A stretch of 64,000 nucleotides of DNA. It comes from an uncultured Bacteroidales bacterium. GTDB taxonomy: Bacteria > Bacteroidota > Bacteroidia > Bacteroidales > Paludibacteraceae. The position numbers were made by a program, and so were the translations under genes. Below, in pieces: positions 51,092 to 56,860 of this stretch. The notes below the pieces were generated by a model. The model saw nothing but the letters and a program-made list of their open reading frames with translations, was not told the DNA's origin and made no database searches. The stretch's first letter is position 1. The number at the start of each line of letters is the position of its first letter. Location: NCBI GenBank assembly GCA_949282265.1, contig CASDOZ010000003.1:62001-126000 (forward strand). The letters are read 5' to 3'.

Positions 51092-51167
51092 AACGGGAAA
51101 TTATCAAACCGTTGGATAAGTGGAGACTGAAAAGAACGATTATCCAACATTTCACAGAAAAACAACA

Positions 51168-51191
51168 GAGGTCGGCCTAAAAGCCGACCTC
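51168..51191 (+). terminator. First hairpin after GH97
   Basis: GAGGTCGGC and GCCGACCTC form a perfect 9-bp stem around CTAAAA. The tail TTAAAATAAA is weak. Confidence 0.6.
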
Positions 51192-51200
51192 TTAAAATAA

Positions 51201-51240
51201 AGGGAATTACAGCGGGAATAGCCAGTAATTCCTTTTGTTT
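51201..51240 (+). terminator. Second terminator after GH97, end of PUL 2
   Basis: GGAATTAC and GTAATTCC (51203-51210, 51225-51232), extended by A-T and G-U pairs, are followed by TTTTGTTT. Together with the preceding hairpin it closes the PUL 2 transcript. The remaining bases to 51370 show nothing recognisable. Confidence 0.7.
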
Positions 51241-51370
51241 TATCCTCTATATCAATGCAATATCGGGCAATGACAGATTATTCCATATATCCATATCGTC
51301 CGATCTTATATCTGGCAACAAAAAATCTTCCCGTTATTAATCACTTAATTTTCAATTTTTCCCATAAAAC

Positions 51371-54300
51371 TTACACATATCTGGCCAAAAAACCCAATGC
51401 CTTATCTTGGTTTGAATTATTCAATATATACGATTTATTGCCTACTATATATAATGCTTTGCGCGCACGAGTAACAGCAACATTCATAATGTTAGAACAT
51501 GCCTCATCTATCCAACGAATTTTATTTATAGGAGAATTATTTGTTACCACTAAACTAATAATTATCATATCTCTTTCATCGCCTTGGAAAGCATGGACTG
51601 TATCGGCTGTAACACTATCTCTCAATTTTTCAGAAATCTTTTTATTTATTTCGGCAGCTTGATCTCGAAAAGGGGTGATTATGCCAATACTATATCTGTA
51701 CTCCTCACATTTTTCCCGGGCCAATTCAAGCGTTTTAGAAACTTCTTTCTCATTTATATTAATTGTTGAATCCATTTGTTCCCCTTGTACATCTACCCAC
51801 CAAATACCGTCGGTTCCATCTGCTACTGTATTAATTTCGAGATTACGTCCCAATCTTTTTCTATAAAAGAAATCATTTGAATAGCCTATTATTCGTGGAT
51901 GACACCTATAATGTCCCGTAAGCATTATAGGTTTATTCACATCGTAAGCATTGGAAATAAAACTCGAGCAATAGTCCCAAAGAGATTCTTCCACATATTT
52001 CAAATTATTACATTCACTTAAATTCAATTGATCAGCAATGATGTTTTCTTCTTCTGTTGTAACAGGAGTAATATGCTTTAACTGTAAAGGATCACCTATA
52101 ACAACTATTTGCTTTGCCCTTGCCACCAAAGGAATAGCTGATGCTATATCACATTGGGATGCCTCGTCTATGATAACCATGTCAAATAAATCTTCCGCAA
52201 TTGGGAATGCACTTTTAATAGACAAACTAGTTACTGCATTTAATTTGAATACATCCAAGAATTCACTTGCATTTTGTACAAACTCATCTAATCGCTTCGG
52301 GTCTGTTGGAATATTATCGGGGATAAACTGTTTATACCTATTTACCTTTTGAATTGCATCTTTCTGATTAAGAGTTTCTATCAAACAATCAAACAATATA
52401 TTTACACTATTTTGTTTGATAAAATTTATACAGTCATTCTTATCTATCTCCAACTGCTCTATTTTCTTCACACATGAAGCCAACGACGCATTACAAACGT
52501 CTATTTTCTTATTAATTGACTGTATCTGCTGATTTAATAATCTGTATTTTCGTTCTATTTCTTTTTTAATCAGAGCAATATCTATCAACAGTTTGTTAGC
52601 TTGTAGCATAACATTCAATGCAGTATCACTTTGAGCCAAAATTTCTCTAGTACTTTTAAAATCTTCAACCTTTTGTTTTAGCGGTAAGGTTCCAAAATAA
52701 TTTCTGATAGTATATGGACATTCAGCAATTGCCTGTAATAGCTCCATAATATATTTATTCTTGTTAAACAGAAGATTCCATAATTTTCTATAGCCAGTAA
52801 ATTTATGGTACAATTTATTCCGTAATGACTGCATGATTATACAACAAGCATCCACATCTTTCTCTTTACAATCAATCACAAATGACCAAATGTCCTGATT
52901 GGATTTTTGTAATTCACTCAATTCATTCTTACTCCACGACTTAAGATTAGCTACTCCTTCAACAAATCTTTTTAATTCATCTTGCAAGTTGCTTTTTTCA
53001 TCCTCAAAACGTTTCTTTGTATCAAGCTGTTTGTTATATTCTTTTTTTACTTCTTCCAGCAACTTCTTCTTTTCCAGGTATTCAGCATAAGCATTTGTTT
53101 CTAATGAAATTGGAGGACGACGAATAAAATCATCTAAAGCTGATATTGTCGTTTTTCTTATATACTCCTTATGACCAAAACGCATCAGAAAATCATTGCT
53201 TCCTGTAATAGCATCAAAACGGTCTTTTACATTATCAACCGCCTTATTATTTTTACTTGCCACTAAAACTTTCTTTCCGCGAACCGCTGCATTAGCGAGA
53301 ATATTTAAAATTACTTGAGTTTTCCCTGTTCCCGGAGGTCCGGTTATAACCGACAATTTATTGTTAAGTGCGTACAAAACAGCTTCTTCTTGATATTGAT
53401 CCAAAGAGGTTATATGTAAAATTTCATCCTTATCTACTAGCCCTCCATCCAATTGATTTGTAATAGGAGCTCTTAATAAAAAATCCTGCAACAAAGAATT
53501 CTTGTTTGCTATCCGATTCAAATTCCAATTACTCACCTCTGAATAAGTTTGACTTATAGCTGGATTCTTTTGGCTTAAGGCTACGCATGCAATCTTTTCC
53601 AGAACAGCATCTTTCGAAACAACTCGCTTTATGACTTCCTGCAATCCATCAAACGATGGCAACGGTTCTGTTGAAGAAATATATTCTGCTAACTTTTCCA
53701 CATCTTCTGCAATAAGTCCTAGTTTATCAGCCTCTTGAATATTTACAGTAAAATCAGCAAAGTCAACAACCAGATCATCTTTTTGTATATCAAAATTCTT
53801 CAGAACTGATATATTAACAATATTATTGAATAAACGATACTTTTGTCTGTTGATTGATATACATAATCCTATATACAAATTAGCCGGCCATTTTGTCTTT
53901 TGCTCATCTAAATTGTCTTTATACAAACTTACAAATTGCTGATTATTAATGAGTTTTAATATAAATGTATTCTCATCTTTATATCCCAATTCGTATTCAT
54001 AAACATTTTTGACTTGTGGTTCTTTACTTCTTTCCAATTCCAAAGCCACCTTATAAAACAGCAAAATCTTATCTATTATACTTGCATTATTCTTAACATT
54101 ATTCTGAACTAATTCTATTAATCGCTTTATAGCCTTCTCATTAATCATATTCTTCGGTTTAATATAAAATTCCTTTCTTATAATTTCAATATTCAATTGT
54201 TCTTTCGTAAAAACCAGCATTTTAATTGTTCCACGTTCAGGCAACTGGCCACTACACCTACGAATGATGCTTTCATCATTAATTCCCATGTATTTAGCAA

Positions 54301-54943
54301 AAGCTTCTATACGTACACTTCCTATATTGGTAGGCCCAACGCAGAAAAAATAATTTTTCCCCTTAATCACACTGTTTACTAAAGACGACAAAGACTCTAA
54401 ATTTATCGATGTTATATCCAGTATATTAGAAAAGAAATGCAAGGTTACACCTTGTTCCATCGGAAGATCTTCCGCCTTTAAATCATCTATAAACTTATTA
54501 ACACACAACAAATTTTTATCACTTTTCAGATAGGACCGCAAATGAATCTTTGCACGTCCCAATGCCTTACATGATGGTTCTATTAAGATTATTTTCTTTA
54601 CATTTTCAAAGTTGATGCCATTCTCCCTAAAATAATCCAAACAACAACAACTCGCAAGACCTTGGCCGCATCCCCAATCAACAATCGTAACATTTTGTAC
54701 ATAATATCTAAAAGAAGCCGGCAAAGCATTCAATGCAATACGTACTTTCTTCTCATGCATTTTCCCATACGACCACAGATATTGAGAAAGCAATTCATCC
54801 GTACGCAACAAATCAACACCATGATTCAATCCTTTCCATGGACAATGACGCTTCTCTACAGACAATGTACTGTATGCGATTCGGATAAAATCATTAAAAA
54901 CAGGATTCTCCAAATTTTCTATTTGACTTTCATAATCAACCAT
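51371..54943 (-). CDS. Methyltransferase-like domain fused to SF1 (UPF1-type) helicase
   Basis: The 1190-residue product has three parts. Residues about 80-230 form a class I SAM-methyltransferase-like domain (VTIVDWGCGQGLAS as motif I, IILIEPSC next). About 240-500 is an unassigned region. From about 510 comes a superfamily 1 helicase: Q motif DQYQEEAV, Walker A GPPGTGKT (535-542), Walker B IIDEASQ (925-930), motif III VVIGDPLQL (947-955), TGHYRCHP (1009), HAFQGDERD (1117) and NVAVTRARKAL (1154). A helical, coiled-coil-rich insert at about 615-860 splits the first RecA domain. No nuclease motif is visible. It is AT-rich and starts 9 bp after the stop of the DUF1848 gene, so the two form an operon. 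The biological role is unknown; defence or nucleic-acid repair is a guess. Confidence 0.85.
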   Translation of the reverse strand: MVDYESQIENLENPVFNDFIRIAYSTLSVEKRHCPWKGLNHGVDLLRTDELLSQYLWSYGKMHEKKVRIALNALPASFRYYVQNVTIVDWGCGQGLASCCCLDYFRENGINFENVKKIILIEPSCKALGRAKIHLRSYLKSDKNLLCVNKFIDDLKAEDLPMEQGVTLHFFSNILDITSINLESLSSLVNSVIKGKNYFFCVGPTNIGSVRIEAFAKYMGINDESIIRRCSGQLPERGTIKMLVFTKEQLNIEIIRKEFYIKPKNMINEKAIKRLIELVQNNVKNNASIIDKILLFYKVALELERSKEPQVKNVYEYELGYKDENTFILKLINNQQFVSLYKDNLDEQKTKWPANLYIGLCISINRQKYRLFNNIVNISVLKNFDIQKDDLVVDFADFTVNIQEADKLGLIAEDVEKLAEYISSTEPLPSFDGLQEVIKRVVSKDAVLEKIACVALSQKNPAISQTYSEVSNWNLNRIANKNSLLQDFLLRAPITNQLDGGLVDKDEILHITSLDQYQEEAVLYALNNKLSVITGPPGTGKTQVILNILANAAVRGKKVLVASKNNKAVDNVKDRFDAITGSNDFLMRFGHKEYIRKTTISALDDFIRRPPISLETNAYAEYLEKKKLLEEVKKEYNKQLDTKKRFEDEKSNLQDELKRFVEGVANLKSWSKNELSELQKSNQDIWSFVIDCKEKDVDACCIIMQSLRNKLYHKFTGYRKLWNLLFNKNKYIMELLQAIAECPYTIRNYFGTLPLKQKVEDFKSTREILAQSDTALNVMLQANKLLIDIALIKKEIERKYRLLNQQIQSINKKIDVCNASLASCVKKIEQLEIDKNDCINFIKQNSVNILFDCLIETLNQKDAIQKVNRYKQFIPDNIPTDPKRLDEFVQNASEFLDVFKLNAVTSLSIKSAFPIAEDLFDMVIIDEASQCDIASAIPLVARAKQIVVIGDPLQLKHITPVTTEEENIIADQLNLSECNNLKYVEESLWDYCSSFISNAYDVNKPIMLTGHYRCHPRIIGYSNDFFYRKRLGRNLEINTVADGTDGIWWVDVQGEQMDSTININEKEVSKTLELAREKCEEYRYSIGIITPFRDQAAEINKKISEKLRDSVTADTVHAFQGDERDMIIISLVVTNNSPINKIRWIDEACSNIMNVAVTRARKALYIVGNKSYILNNSNQDKALGFLARYV

Positions 54944-54952
54944 CTACTAAAT

Positions 54953-56011
54953 CTATCCCAATATACTTTCTACAAAAGGATTTTTCTTGTGGAACATCCA
55001 GTTTTCTATTGCAATGTCCTTACTTGCATTCGCATAGCAATATTCACATAAATGAGGGCAAGTATTATATTCACCTATATCTTTACTTTTCATACATCCG
55101 CAAGCTATGCGTTGCCCCTTGTCCTTATTATTCTTTTTTATAATGGCATACAAATTGTTCTCTAAATAAATAGCATCTCCATCATAAAAGAGGAATGAAG
55201 GATTCCGATTATCAATAATTTCAACTCCAAGAAAATCCATTAATTTTTTGGACTTATAACCCAAACGCACCATAAGGCGGTCATCTATGCAATGATTATG
55301 TTCTACTCCATCTAAATCAACAATCTCACCACAAGTTGCAATAACATAATTCCAACCTTTTGCTTTATTCATATAGACGAGTTTTTGCGCAAACTCTATC
55401 ATTTGTTCCTTTGTCCAATCCATATAATTAATATGGCCACGTTCAAGGTTTGATTTAACCTTGCGATATGATAATATATCTGCGAAGCTAAAAACCAGTT
55501 TCTCTGTATAACCTTTAAGTTGGTCACCTATGTATTCTATCTTTCGCAGAAGTTTATCACTATCAATTTTGTCTGTCAAAATAAGAGGGTCAAACCTCCA
55601 AATTACAGCCCCTTTACCAAGCCTGTCGACAAACATCTTAAATGTTTCTATACGTTCTTCAAGCGGAGGTACACCACGTTCCAACCCTTCATCTTCATAA
55701 TTGTTAAGCGTGTATTGCACGTAACAACCAATGCCTCTCTCTTTTAAATAGTCAAGGTGTTTGAGAAGTGGACGAGGGTTCTTCGACCAAAAAACAATGA
55801 ATTTCGTATCTTCATAGGCTACATAGCTTTTCTTTCCATTGAATGGATTTGTCCATGCGGAATATCCTTTTTTAAGGCGTTCAAAAAACCAGTCTGCATA
55901 AAAAGCCGGGATGTCAGTACTCCGACTTGCAGATACAACAATGGGAAAAATGGCTTTAGCCATATCTTTATTGTCAAGTTTTATAAATCTATCTTCTTGT
56001 TTATTTGCCAT
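54953..56011 (-). CDS. DUF1848-family protein with C-terminal CX3CX2C iron-sulfur motif
   Basis: This 352-residue protein matches the DUF1848 pattern. An N-terminal VVSASRSTDIPAFYADWFFE is followed by FIVFWSKNPRPLLKHL, VIWRFDPLILTDKI and LVFSFADIL, in an apparent TIM-barrel order. The C-terminus has C304 and C306, then C318-x3-C322-x2-C325 (TCPHLCEYCYANAS). This is the spacing of radical-SAM cluster ligands, but at the C-terminal end instead of the N-terminal one. It is likely an iron-sulfur enzyme; the reaction is unknown. It is cytoplasmic, AT-rich, and is the first gene of a two-gene unit with the methyltransferase-helicase. No consensus promoter is clear upstream. Confidence 0.87.
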   Translation of the reverse strand: MANKQEDRFIKLDNKDMAKAIFPIVVSASRSTDIPAFYADWFFERLKKGYSAWTNPFNGKKSYVAYEDTKFIVFWSKNPRPLLKHLDYLKERGIGCYVQYTLNNYEDEGLERGVPPLEERIETFKMFVDRLGKGAVIWRFDPLILTDKIDSDKLLRKIEYIGDQLKGYTEKLVFSFADILSYRKVKSNLERGHINYMDWTKEQMIEFAQKLVYMNKAKGWNYVIATCGEIVDLDGVEHNHCIDDRLMVRLGYKSKKLMDFLGVEIIDNRNPSFLFYDGDAIYLENNLYAIIKKNNKDKGQRIACGCMKSKDIGEYNTCPHLCEYCYANASKDIAIENWMFHKKNPFVESILG

Positions 56012-56410
56012 AAATATAATCTTATCTTTAGCTTCAAAACTTTTTTATCCAAGATATAAAAGGATTTTCAAATGATTGATTTTTCCTCAGTTCTTTTATA
56101 GGATTCACCTTTCCCAAGAGATTCTTGCTAATTTTTGTGTTTCAGTTTCTCAGACTTTAAACTTACAAAAGCAATAAACACTCCTTTATTCTCAAACATA
56201 TAGAATTGGCTTATCCAAATACAAAATTACTAAAAACATTTAGAAAAGAAGAATATACTACAAAAACATTTTTTTACTGATTAAAATAATCAATCCCTCG
56301 CAATGACAAATATCGCTCACCTACCGTAAATCGGCATACCAATGAGATATTTTATGTGAAGCAAAAACGGAGGATAGCAAAAATTCACACATTCCTGTCC
56401 AAACTACATA

Positions 56411-56446
56411 CAAAAAACGTGGAGCCGGTCTGCCGCCCGTTCCACG
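56411..56446 (-). terminator. Terminator at the 3' end of the candidate ncRNA
   Basis: On the minus strand CGTGGA ... TCCACG, with an inner CGG/CCG helix, is followed directly by TTTTTT. The structure is G-C rich in an AT-rich region. Confidence 0.75.
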
Positions 56447-56739
56447 ATGTAAAGGCCTTCGCTTTTAGTCGAAACGAGCAACGTCGAAAGCCCCACGCTA
56501 ATGTTTATGTATATTAATACCCATGCCCGCTTCCCCTATCATTCCATGACAAGGCGCAACAAGGGCTGTGTATAAACATCCCAAGGGACGTTCCCGTTGC
56601 TTTGGTTTTTGACTAACTCATTGAAGTTAAGAATTTGCGAAGTTCTTACACCGTCAAAACAAAAGCGCCAGTAAACGTCTTTTCGTATGTATCCCCCACC
56701 CAACCTTACTGCCAAACAGCATCAGCGTGAGGAAAGCGC
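56412..56739 (-). ncRNA. Candidate structured non-coding RNA, about 320 nt, unassigned
   Basis: No open frame of note covers this stretch, yet it is G-C richer than the flanks and begins after a consensus -7 box (TATCTTTG) and ends in a terminator. Several helices can be drawn in the minus-strand transcript. TGTTTAT pairs with ATAAACA, closing a domain. GTTTTGAC pairs with GTCAAAAAC around an inner AAGAA/TTCTT hairpin. GGCTTTCG pairs with CGAAGGCC near the 3' end. It does not show the tRNA-like ends of tmRNA, the CR-I/CR-V motifs of RNase P RNA, or the SRP RNA core. The rest of the gap between DUF1848 and the transglutaminase gene (56012-56892) shows nothing else recognisable. Confidence 0.6.
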
Positions 56740-56746
56740 AAAGATA
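56739..56746 (-). promoter_or_regulatory. -7 promoter element of the candidate ncRNA
   Basis: The minus strand reads TATCTTTG, an exact TAnnTTTG match. No open reading frame starts just downstream, so it points to an RNA gene. Confidence 0.6.
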
Positions 56747-56860
56747 GTTATTCTTTATAATTTATTGTCTTAAAATTGGATGAATTCAAAAAATAAATAC
56801 ACTGCCGACCGGTCCTTTTTTTGCAAATCCCGGACGCCGCCTGCATTCAATAAAATCCCG

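What the first reader, a model, noticed from the sequence alone, without database searches (positions are those of the whole stretch)
51371..56011. Two-gene unit: DUF1848 iron-sulfur-like protein plus methyltransferase-SF1 helicase
The two genes are 9 bp apart on the minus strand, AT-rich compared with the PUL genes on one side and the receptor operon on the other, and isolated between terminators and an RNA gene. A possible radical-type enzyme, a methyltransferase-like domain and a nucleic-acid helicase in one transcript suggest a nucleic-acid modification, repair or anti-phage system. I know of no named system with this pair. No integrase or insertion sequence is visible, so transfer is inferred from composition only.
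Basis: partly seen in the sequence, partly recalled or inferred. Interest (0 to 1): 0.75.

Follow-up and report, generated by a model that had tools for sequence, protein, structure and literature searches.

The report
DUF1848 plus methyltransferase-helicase gene module
Two neighbouring genes in this bacterium belong to an apparently undescribed family of swappable gene modules, some of which sit among phage-defence genes, and in which an oxygen-using DNA/RNA repair enzyme and an oxygen-free candidate enzyme seem to stand in for each other.

Summary
In detail: two intact minus-strand genes, 9 bp apart, AT-rich, 51371-56011. The pair is real and conserved. I scanned 84,980 species genomes for the N-terminal methyltransferase (MT) domain and kept the best 80 of 266 relatives. 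DUF1848 lies directly upstream in 54 of 80, is fused in 1, and lies elsewhere in the held flank in 5. In 17 of the other 20, and beside DUF1848 in 5 more, there is an AlkB-family dioxygenase (ALKBH2/3-like). AlkB loci are all in genomes with a COX1-family match (22 of 22); DUF1848-only loci mostly are not (4 of 55). The rest of the MT protein or operon varies: SF1 helicase (window), SF2 helicase, UvrD, repeats, ADP-ribosylation genes. BREX or type I restriction genes lie beside 20 of 80 loci against 2 of 54 control stretches, but mainly beside AlkB forms (14 of 22), less beside DUF1848-only ones (6 of 55) and beside none of 9 SF1-type loci. In a same-genus genome the site holds other AT-rich cargo. 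Reading: a mobile module with a methyl 'writer' and a partner that is AlkB or its proposed oxygen-independent stand-in DUF1848. Module and partner exchange are well supported; defence is likely; the chemistry is inferred. My searches found no paper describing it.

The parts
51371..54943 (-). methyltransferase-SF1 helicase gene, 1190 aa
54164..54943 (-). N-terminal class I SAM-dependent methyltransferase (MT) domain, about residues 1-260 (DWGCGQG, EPS, FSNILD); the constant part across relatives
53429..54136 (-). linking region, about residues 270-505, unknown; shared with SF1-type relatives
51371..53416 (-). SF1 helicase core, about residues 510-1190, with GPPGTGKT (535), DEAS (926), GDPLQL (950), VAVTRA (1155)
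54953..56011 (-). DUF1848 gene, 352 aa; first gene of the pair
55037..55102 (-). CxC...CxxxCxxC cysteine motif of DUF1848 (residues 304-325), radical-SAM-like but at the C-terminus
51212..56407 (.). variable cargo interval, replaced by other genes in the same-genus genome G001
51167..51192 (-). terminator-like hairpin at the left border of the cargo, shared with G001

Best explanation
The pair is one form of a mobile, modular, defence-like system. Its constant core is (i) an undescribed class I SAM-dependent methyltransferase domain, the 'writer', and (ii) a small partner that is either an AlkB-type Fe(II)/2-oxoglutarate dioxygenase (in genomes with a COX1-family oxidase) or the cysteine-motif protein DUF1848 (mainly in genomes without one). 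I propose that DUF1848 is the oxygen-independent functional stand-in for AlkB, an 'eraser' of methyl or other adducts on nucleic acid. The core is joined to exchangeable helicase, nuclease, ADP-ribosyl or repeat parts; in the window this is an SF1 helicase. Proposed action: the helicase exposes single-stranded invader (or infection-specific) DNA or RNA, the MT domain methylates it as a damaging or marking lesion, and AlkB/DUF1848 keeps the cell's own nucleic acid clean. Shown here: conservation of the module, the partner exchange, its association with COX1 (not kinship-corrected to significance), defence neighbours of the family as a whole, and cargo exchange at the window site. Inferred: nucleic-acid substrate, direction (write versus erase), anti-phage effect, radical-SAM chemistry, and that the window's own SF1 form shares the role of the forms found in BREX.
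For: Linkage: DUF1848 -91 to +105 bp upstream of MT in 54 of 80 loci, fused in 1; a second fusion in another sample (L175/L212). Exchange: AlkB in 17 of 20 loci without DUF1848 and in 5 of 60 with it; Fisher p 2.3e-10 (not corrected for kinship). Exchange in three architectures: SF1 (L048), SF2 (L051/L052 beside L043/L059), ART type (L103, L106, L114, L118, L121 against L117, L197/L035, L198, L201, L202); 7 changes of the AlkB label on the MT tree, quick method. Oxygen: AlkB loci 22 of 22 in COX1+ genomes, DUF1848-only 4 of 55 (one genome, G491, had a match under the cut-off and is counted as negative). AlkB iron and 2OG motifs in 22 of 22; closest solved relatives ALKBH3 (9.8e-37) and ALKBH2. 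MT model: TrmM, NTM1, Bud23, KsgA among Foldseek hits at E 1e-5 to 3e-5. Effector-like parts: PIN in L044, weak MTES_1575 nuclease match in L066, UvrD, 2CompART/2CompARG beside L035. Defence: at least two BREX families in 10 of 80 loci, one in L065, type I RM genes in 9; together 20 of 80 against 2 of 54 control stretches; 113 sampled neighbours match 135 PADLOC models, 113 control proteins 7 (models are redundant). In six loci the module lies between a PglX-like methylase and PglZ, with up to two other genes in between (L078, L090, L091, L116, L118, L121; order, identities of cluster representatives). Mobility: cargo swap in G001.
Against: No functional data. The window pair is not in a defence island. 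Defence neighbours are mainly on the AlkB side: 14 of 22 AlkB loci but 6 of 55 DUF1848-only loci (p 0.27 against controls) and 0 of 9 SF1-type loci; many DUF1848 loci have short flanks. The COX1 split is partly kinship: 5 starred independent pairs, on average 3.6 agreeing, 0 opposed, 1.4 undecided, p 0.125. DUF1848-only also occurs in COX1+ genomes (4 of 55 in the main set; 4 of 14 in the added set), and both partners coexist in 5 loci, so they are not strict alternatives. Six MT loci show no partner in the held flank (L049 and L055 cut by contig ends; L092, L194, L195, L196); genome G881 (L195, L196) shows neither family. Radical-SAM assignment rests on a motif: Pfam 16 bits against 29.5, no PDB fold match at E<=0.001. 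The MT motif is altered in some ART-type proteins (DWACG in L103 and L114; none found in L117), so not every MT need be active. Most DUF1848 genes seen in the phylum sample are standalone (matches in 75 of 395 genomes against MT in 6 of the same 395).
Confidence: 0.45

Rival explanations
1. Self-repair rather than attack: the module mends alkylated or otherwise damaged DNA/RNA (from phage or rival toxins). AlkB/DUF1848 reverses lesions, the helicase opens the substrate, and the MT restores a lost methyl mark.
For: The AlkB partner is ALKBH2/3-like, families known for direct reversal of alkylation (recalled). The helicase resembles IGHMBP2-family helicases (below the cut-off). The window form has no defence neighbours, nor do its 9 SF1-type relatives show BREX or type I RM genes.
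Against: Nuclease, PIN and ADP-ribosyltransferase parts join the same core and some modules nest inside BREX. A methyltransferase is not needed for AlkB repair (recalled).
Confidence: 0.25
2. Modification pathway: MT and AlkB/DUF1848 act in sequence to build a hypermodified base or a self-mark (methylate, then oxidise or rearrange), read by the helicase or nuclease as self/non-self, like a restriction-modification system.
For: Enzyme pair plus helicase or nuclease; some neighbours are BREX and type I RM genes.
Against: No target-recognition domain was recognised by Pfam in the 19 MT proteins scanned. Several MT proteins show no recognised nuclease or helicase (L034, L089, L097, L100, L111, L115).
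Confidence: 0.2
3. DUF1848 and AlkB have unrelated roles and both merely travel with the MT gene in accessory islands; the split reflects which lineages hold which gene.
For: Kinship explains part of the split; standalone DUF1848 is common; DUF1848 loci are less often beside BREX/RM than AlkB loci.
Against: Near-exclusive use of the position upstream of MT, two DUF1848-MT fusions, exchange in three architectures, and probably two recruitments of DUF1848 lineages.
Confidence: 0.17

Closest known systems
Mokosh (MkoA/MkoC)
   Same: closest PADLOC model to the helicase: MkoC 1.2e-63, in the helicase region only
   Different: no kinase or phospholipase-D domain matched; the MT domain and DUF1848 partner are not part of Mokosh as I recall it
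BREX
   Same: 10 of 80 relatives lie in or beside BREX clusters, six of them between a PglX-like methylase and PglZ
   Different: the nearest genes of the window are not BREX genes; the 2026 BREX survey PMC12839542 has no AlkB, 2OG, oxygenase, radical SAM, demethyl- or DUF1848 in its main text (term counts and passages; section 35 part 1 of 2 read; supplements not seen)
PADLOC RTasDUF1848 (by its name a reverse-transcriptase-associated DUF1848, class DRT)
   Same: same DUF1848 family, 1.5e-39
   Different: no reverse transcriptase among the four nearest flanking genes of the window
AlkB / ALKBH2 / ALKBH3 direct-reversal dioxygenases
   Same: hold the partner slot in COX1+ carriers
   Different: DUF1848 matches no 2OG-oxygenase family, has invariant cysteines and a strand-helix model
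Radical SAM enzymes such as Elp3
   Same: CxxxCxYC motif; Elp3 is a weak Foldseek hit, probability 0.99, E 0.033, rank 22
   Different: motif at the C-terminus, Pfam score below cut-off, no significant fold match

Membership tests
Mokosh | SF1 helicase of the MkoA/MkoC kind | tested here: met
   MkoC 1.2e-63, best stretch residues 912-1189
Mokosh | kinase domain (type I) or phospholipase-D nuclease (type II) with the helicase (recalled definition) | tested here: not met
   no such Pfam match to E 0.1 in either protein
BREX | PglZ and BrxC in the locus | tested here: not met
   the four nearest flanking genes are GH31, GH97, transglutaminase-like and TonB-type; genes further out were not scanned
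IGHMBP2 family helicase (TIGR00376) | curated score cut-off | tested here: not met
   144.5 bits against 348.9
Class I SAM methyltransferase | methyltransferase fold and SAM motif | tested here: met
   window: DWGCGQG present, Foldseek E 1e-5 to 2e-5 to TrmM, NTM1, Bud23. Relatives: D[WF]GxG in 71 of 80 by regex; of nine misses, L088, L097 read DYGCG, L100 AWGCG, L103 and L114 DWACG, L121 DWGCG (domain start misplaced), L117 none found, L055 and L098 not looked at again
Class I SAM methyltransferase | methyl transfer to a known substrate | not testable with these tools
   needs an assay
Radical SAM superfamily (DUF1848) | CxxxCxxC cluster motif | tested here: met
   68 of 68 rows labelled MT-linked and 31 of 31 standalone
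Radical SAM superfamily (DUF1848) | family score over cut-off | tested here: not met
   16 against 29.5 bits
Radical SAM superfamily (DUF1848) | partial or full TIM barrel of the superfamily | tested here: inconclusive
   alternating strands and helices at pLDDT 93.9; weak hits, many to barrel enzymes, none at E<=0.001
Radical SAM superfamily (DUF1848) | binds a 4Fe-4S cluster and cleaves SAM | not testable with these tools
   needs purified protein
AlkB family (partner in other loci) | HxD...H iron site and Arg for 2-oxoglutarate | tested here: met
   22 of 22
PADLOC DRT with RTasDUF1848 | reverse transcriptase next to DUF1848 | tested here: not met
   none among the four nearest flanking genes
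Anti-phage defence system | found next to known defence genes | tested here: inconclusive
   family as a whole 20 of 80 against 2 of 54 (p 0.0008); DUF1848-only 6 of 55 (p 0.27); SF1 type 0 of 9
Anti-phage defence system | protects against phage | not testable with these tools
   needs a phage challenge

The most novel reading that the evidence does not exclude
DUF1848 is an oxygen-independent (radical-SAM-type) nucleic-acid demethylase or dealkylase, the anaerobic counterpart of AlkB, and together with an undescribed methyltransferase domain it forms the writer/eraser core of a new family of anti-phage modules whose effector part is freely exchanged and some of which nest inside BREX.
Probability: 0.32. 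Interest if true: 0.93.

Novelty: categorically new. Interest (0 to 1): 0.78.

Why it matters
AlkB-type repair needs oxygen (recalled biochemistry), and I know of no anaerobic enzyme that does its job. A natural exchange between AlkB and DUF1848 in the same gene slot gives a domain of unknown function, matched in 75 of 395 sampled genomes of the phylum, mostly of two genera, a first testable chemical hypothesis. It also points to a module built on writing and perhaps erasing methyl groups, with an exchangeable effector side, part of which is nested in BREX.

Tried and rejected
Rejected: that the pair is a chance neighbour pair; that it is Mokosh, BREX or an IGHMBP2 equivalog; that DUF1848 has a solved relative by sequence (nothing significant); that the neighbouring 'RNA gene' is a tRNA, tmRNA or Rfam family (the only low-threshold match is a chance-level E 3.3).

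Led nowhere: plasmid search with the whole helicase (1158 records, none covering 80% of the query); plasmid search with the MT part (two weak Moraxella records); DUF1848 in plasmids (6 records) and phages (8 records), not followed further; paper search for 2CompART (five unrelated papers), DUF1848 (0), PF08902 (0); Bacteroidetes-type promoter pattern, one candidate at 56166-56196 (-), but matches in the window are at chance level (16 against 13.5); VIA-align not available.

Limits: the 80 loci are the best of 266, found through two peptide motifs; near copies remain (68 clusters at 80% identity) and three genomes hold two loci each. The MT tree is by the quick method, with unsure long rows L055 and L114 and L121 half filled. 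COX1 (PF00115) also takes in nitric-oxide reductases (recalled), and many genomes are MAGs. The type of a whole cluster (SF2, SF1, UvrD, ART, LRR) is named from scanned members. BREX and RM profiles were built from the test loci; Pfam confirmed representatives for PglZ, BrxL, BrxC, BrxB, an Eco57I-type methylase taken as PglX, HsdR and HsdS, while BrxA and HsdM were named by eye. Controls: 60 stretches fetched from contig starts of host genomes, the 54 of at least 5 kb used; they are not random positions. PADLOC check: proteins of 150-1300 aa, module genes left out, 113 of 582 (the first 113 of a random 120) against 113 of 675; of the 113 test proteins 78 came from DUF1848-only loci, but the output does not say which members matched.

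Full report
Observation. The 352-aa protein is DUF1848 (4.8e-88); the 1190-aa protein has an SF1 helicase core with its motifs present and an N-terminal region that Pfam barely sees but whose model matches class I methyltransferases (MT). Composition differs from the near flanks.

A mobile site. Same-genus genome G001 is collinear on both sides (left block 77% identical, right block 97%), but homology stops at window 51211 and resumes at 56408. The 5.2 kb between is replaced there by 3.4 kb of other AT-rich genes: a protein with a weak HAD match (below cut-off), two DUF488 proteins and a dual-OB protein. Both cargoes lie between a shared terminator hairpin and the 3' end of a structured RNA element. 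Neither window cargo protein matches an integrase; exchange by recombination in the flanks is my inference.

The pair is conserved through the MT domain. A first search showed the helicase without MT in one relative (G016) and the MT domain on other proteins in three. An MT alignment scanned against 84,980 species genomes gave 266 relatives; the best 80 were kept. DUF1848 lies directly upstream (-91 to +105 bp, same strand) in 54 of 80, fused in L059, downstream in 4 (L042 directly, three at 1.25-1.66 kb), about 5 kb upstream in L117, and is absent from the held flank in 20. The four viral-contig loci (two alike) have a DUF1848 match next to MT, one only a fragment. A second, profile-based sample of 393 genomes of one order gave 20 with MT, one weak and several already seen. 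Of 20 stretches examined, 13 carry DUF1848 (one fused, L212), 1 carries AlkB (L204), 3 are cut at the contig start (L199, L200, L203) and 3 show no partner (L194-L196).

The partner is exchangeable. In 17 of the 20 loci without DUF1848, and in 5 with it, there is an AlkB-family gene: directly before MT in most, directly after MT in L048, before DUF1848 where both occur, first of a four-gene operon in the ART type. Of the remaining three, L049 and L055 are cut by contig ends and L092 has none. Catalytic motifs are intact in 22 of 22; the closest solved structures are ALKBH3 and ALKBH2. AlkB and DUF1848 avoid each other ([5,17],[55,3], Fisher 2.3e-10). On the MT tree (84 rows, quick method) the AlkB label changes 7 times and the architecture 10 times. 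The exchange is seen inside the SF1, SF2 and ART types.

Oxygen. COX1 was sought in the 77 genomes that hold the 80 loci. AlkB-only 17 of 17 and both 5 of 5 are COX1+; DUF1848-only 4 of 55; neither 1 of 3 (G491, with a match under the cut-off, counted as negative). Fisher p is 3e-15 for AlkB against COX1, but kinship inflates it: five starred independent pairs give on average 3.6 agreeing, none opposed, p 0.125. In 14 further DUF1848-only loci, repeats dropped (L034, L197, L198, L201, L202, L205-L213), 4 genomes are COX1+. So the pattern is asymmetric: AlkB only where COX1 is, DUF1848 in both but mostly without. The window genome has no COX1 and no AlkB, and a second, unlinked DUF1848 gene.

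Orphans. Genomes of partner-less loci were searched for both families: G586 has a DUF1848 elsewhere; G503 has three (one is that of L108); G468 a fragment at a contig end; G462 an AlkB elsewhere; G881, with two MT loci, neither. This is compatible with MT needing a partner in the cell, with one exception.

DUF1848 itself. 75 of 395 phylum genomes match, mainly of two genera, against 6 of the same 395 with MT (the window genome among them, two very weak), so most copies are not MT-linked. On a quick tree of 97 rows, MT-linked copies of Bacteroidota-type loci form one group with support 100 (63 rows, the window copy twice and the unlinked L001 among them); four copies from Bacillota/Eggerthellaceae loci fall with the standalone side, hence probably two recruitments (midpoint root, long branches). 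The 57-row alignment has seven invariant cysteines (227, 241, 304, 306, 318, 322, 325). The model is confident (pLDDT 93.9); I read it as a strand-helix barrel with a C-terminal cysteine segment; no PDB match is significant. PADLOC lists a model RTasDUF1848.

Effector side. Clustering of 84 proteins by the part outside MT gives 50 SF2-type, 10 SF1-type (window among them), 7 ART-type (two clusters), 5 UvrD-type, 2 LRR, 2 short alike, and 8 singletons, named from scanned members: SF2 DEAD/Helicase_C, with a weak MTES_1575 nuclease match in L066; PIN nuclease after the SF1 helicase in L044; Sel1 in L100; Fib_succ_major in L111; LRR in L034 and L115. ART-type operons read [AlkB or DUF1848]-UvrD-ART/ARG-MT.

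Defence setting, for and against. At least two BREX families occur beside 10 of 80 loci, a single one beside L065, type I RM genes beside 9. In six, the module sits between a PglX-like methylase and PglZ, in two architectures. Control: 2 of 54 stretches from contig starts of host genomes; p 0.0008, and for 15 kb or more 19 of 54 against 2 of 47, p 1.3e-4. Random neighbours match 135 PADLOC models against 7 for controls (113 proteins each). But split by partner, AlkB loci give 14 of 22 (p 4e-8), DUF1848-only 6 of 55 (p 0.27; 15 kb or more 6 of 34, p 0.063), any DUF1848 9 of 60 (p 0.057; 15 kb or more 8 of 36, p 0.018), and SF1-type loci 0 of 9. The window form inherits the defence reading from its core, not from its own neighbours.

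Mechanism. The constant members are a methyltransferase and an enzyme of the demethylase family (or its stand-in); the variable members are helicases, nucleases and ADP-ribosyl enzymes. The simplest reading is a methyl write/erase core that damages or marks invader nucleic acid while sparing self, the gene order (partner first) recalling antidote-toxin operons. The nucleic-acid substrate follows from AlkB kinship and helicases; the direction is inferred. Repair and hypermodification remain rivals, repair a little stronger after the split above.

Literature. Full-text searches found no paper with DUF1848 or PF08902. AlkB with BREX as whole words gave seven papers, none on this by title and abstract start. 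Related searches showed nothing relevant in the part listed (15 of 134, 2 of 2, 5 of 5, 12 of 101). Of PMC12839542 I saw passages and section 35 part 1 of 2; of all others only listings. Most subscription papers and supplements are not in this library, so 'not in print' means not in these searches.

Noticed in passing
window 56405-56760 (-): Strongly folding RNA-like element (z -4.4) ending in a terminator-like hairpin, 98% identical in G001 at the cargo border, with about 67% relatives in contigs C14 and C5 of the same genome; no meaningful Rfam match. Possibly an undescribed small-RNA family.
   Followed up: partly
L168 10306-13725 (G001): At the same site the sister genome holds a weakly HAD-like, two DUF488 and a dual-OB gene, so this is a cargo hotspot.
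   Followed up: partly
L041 9122-10279 (-), same gene as in L001: Second DUF1848 gene in the window's genome, unlinked to MT, yet inside the MT-linked group of the tree.
   Followed up: partly
L065, L070, L071, L077, L082: Loci carrying AlkB, DUF1848 and MT in a row, all in COX1+ genomes; useful for testing division of labour with and without oxygen.
   Followed up: no
L057 15121-15924 and L082 7305-8168 as examples: A protein of 158-380 aa, coiled-coil-like in L057, directly follows the MT gene in 43 of the 83 loci (clusters 2 and 7; recount); unknown function, perhaps a third subunit.
   Followed up: no
L034, L089, L097, L100, L111, L115: MT proteins without a recognised helicase, some ending in LRR, Sel1 or Fib_succ_major parts, like variable recognition domains.
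   Followed up: no
L055 217-4494: MT match lies after an SF1 helicase in one 1425-aa protein, the reverse of the window's order.
   Followed up: no
L036 1918-3483: Protein upstream of a 5'-truncated DUF1848 looks by eye like a diversity-generating-retroelement target; no Pfam match.
   Followed up: no
neighbours in alignment A5: Two of 113 sampled neighbours match retron/DRT reverse-transcriptase models.
   Followed up: no
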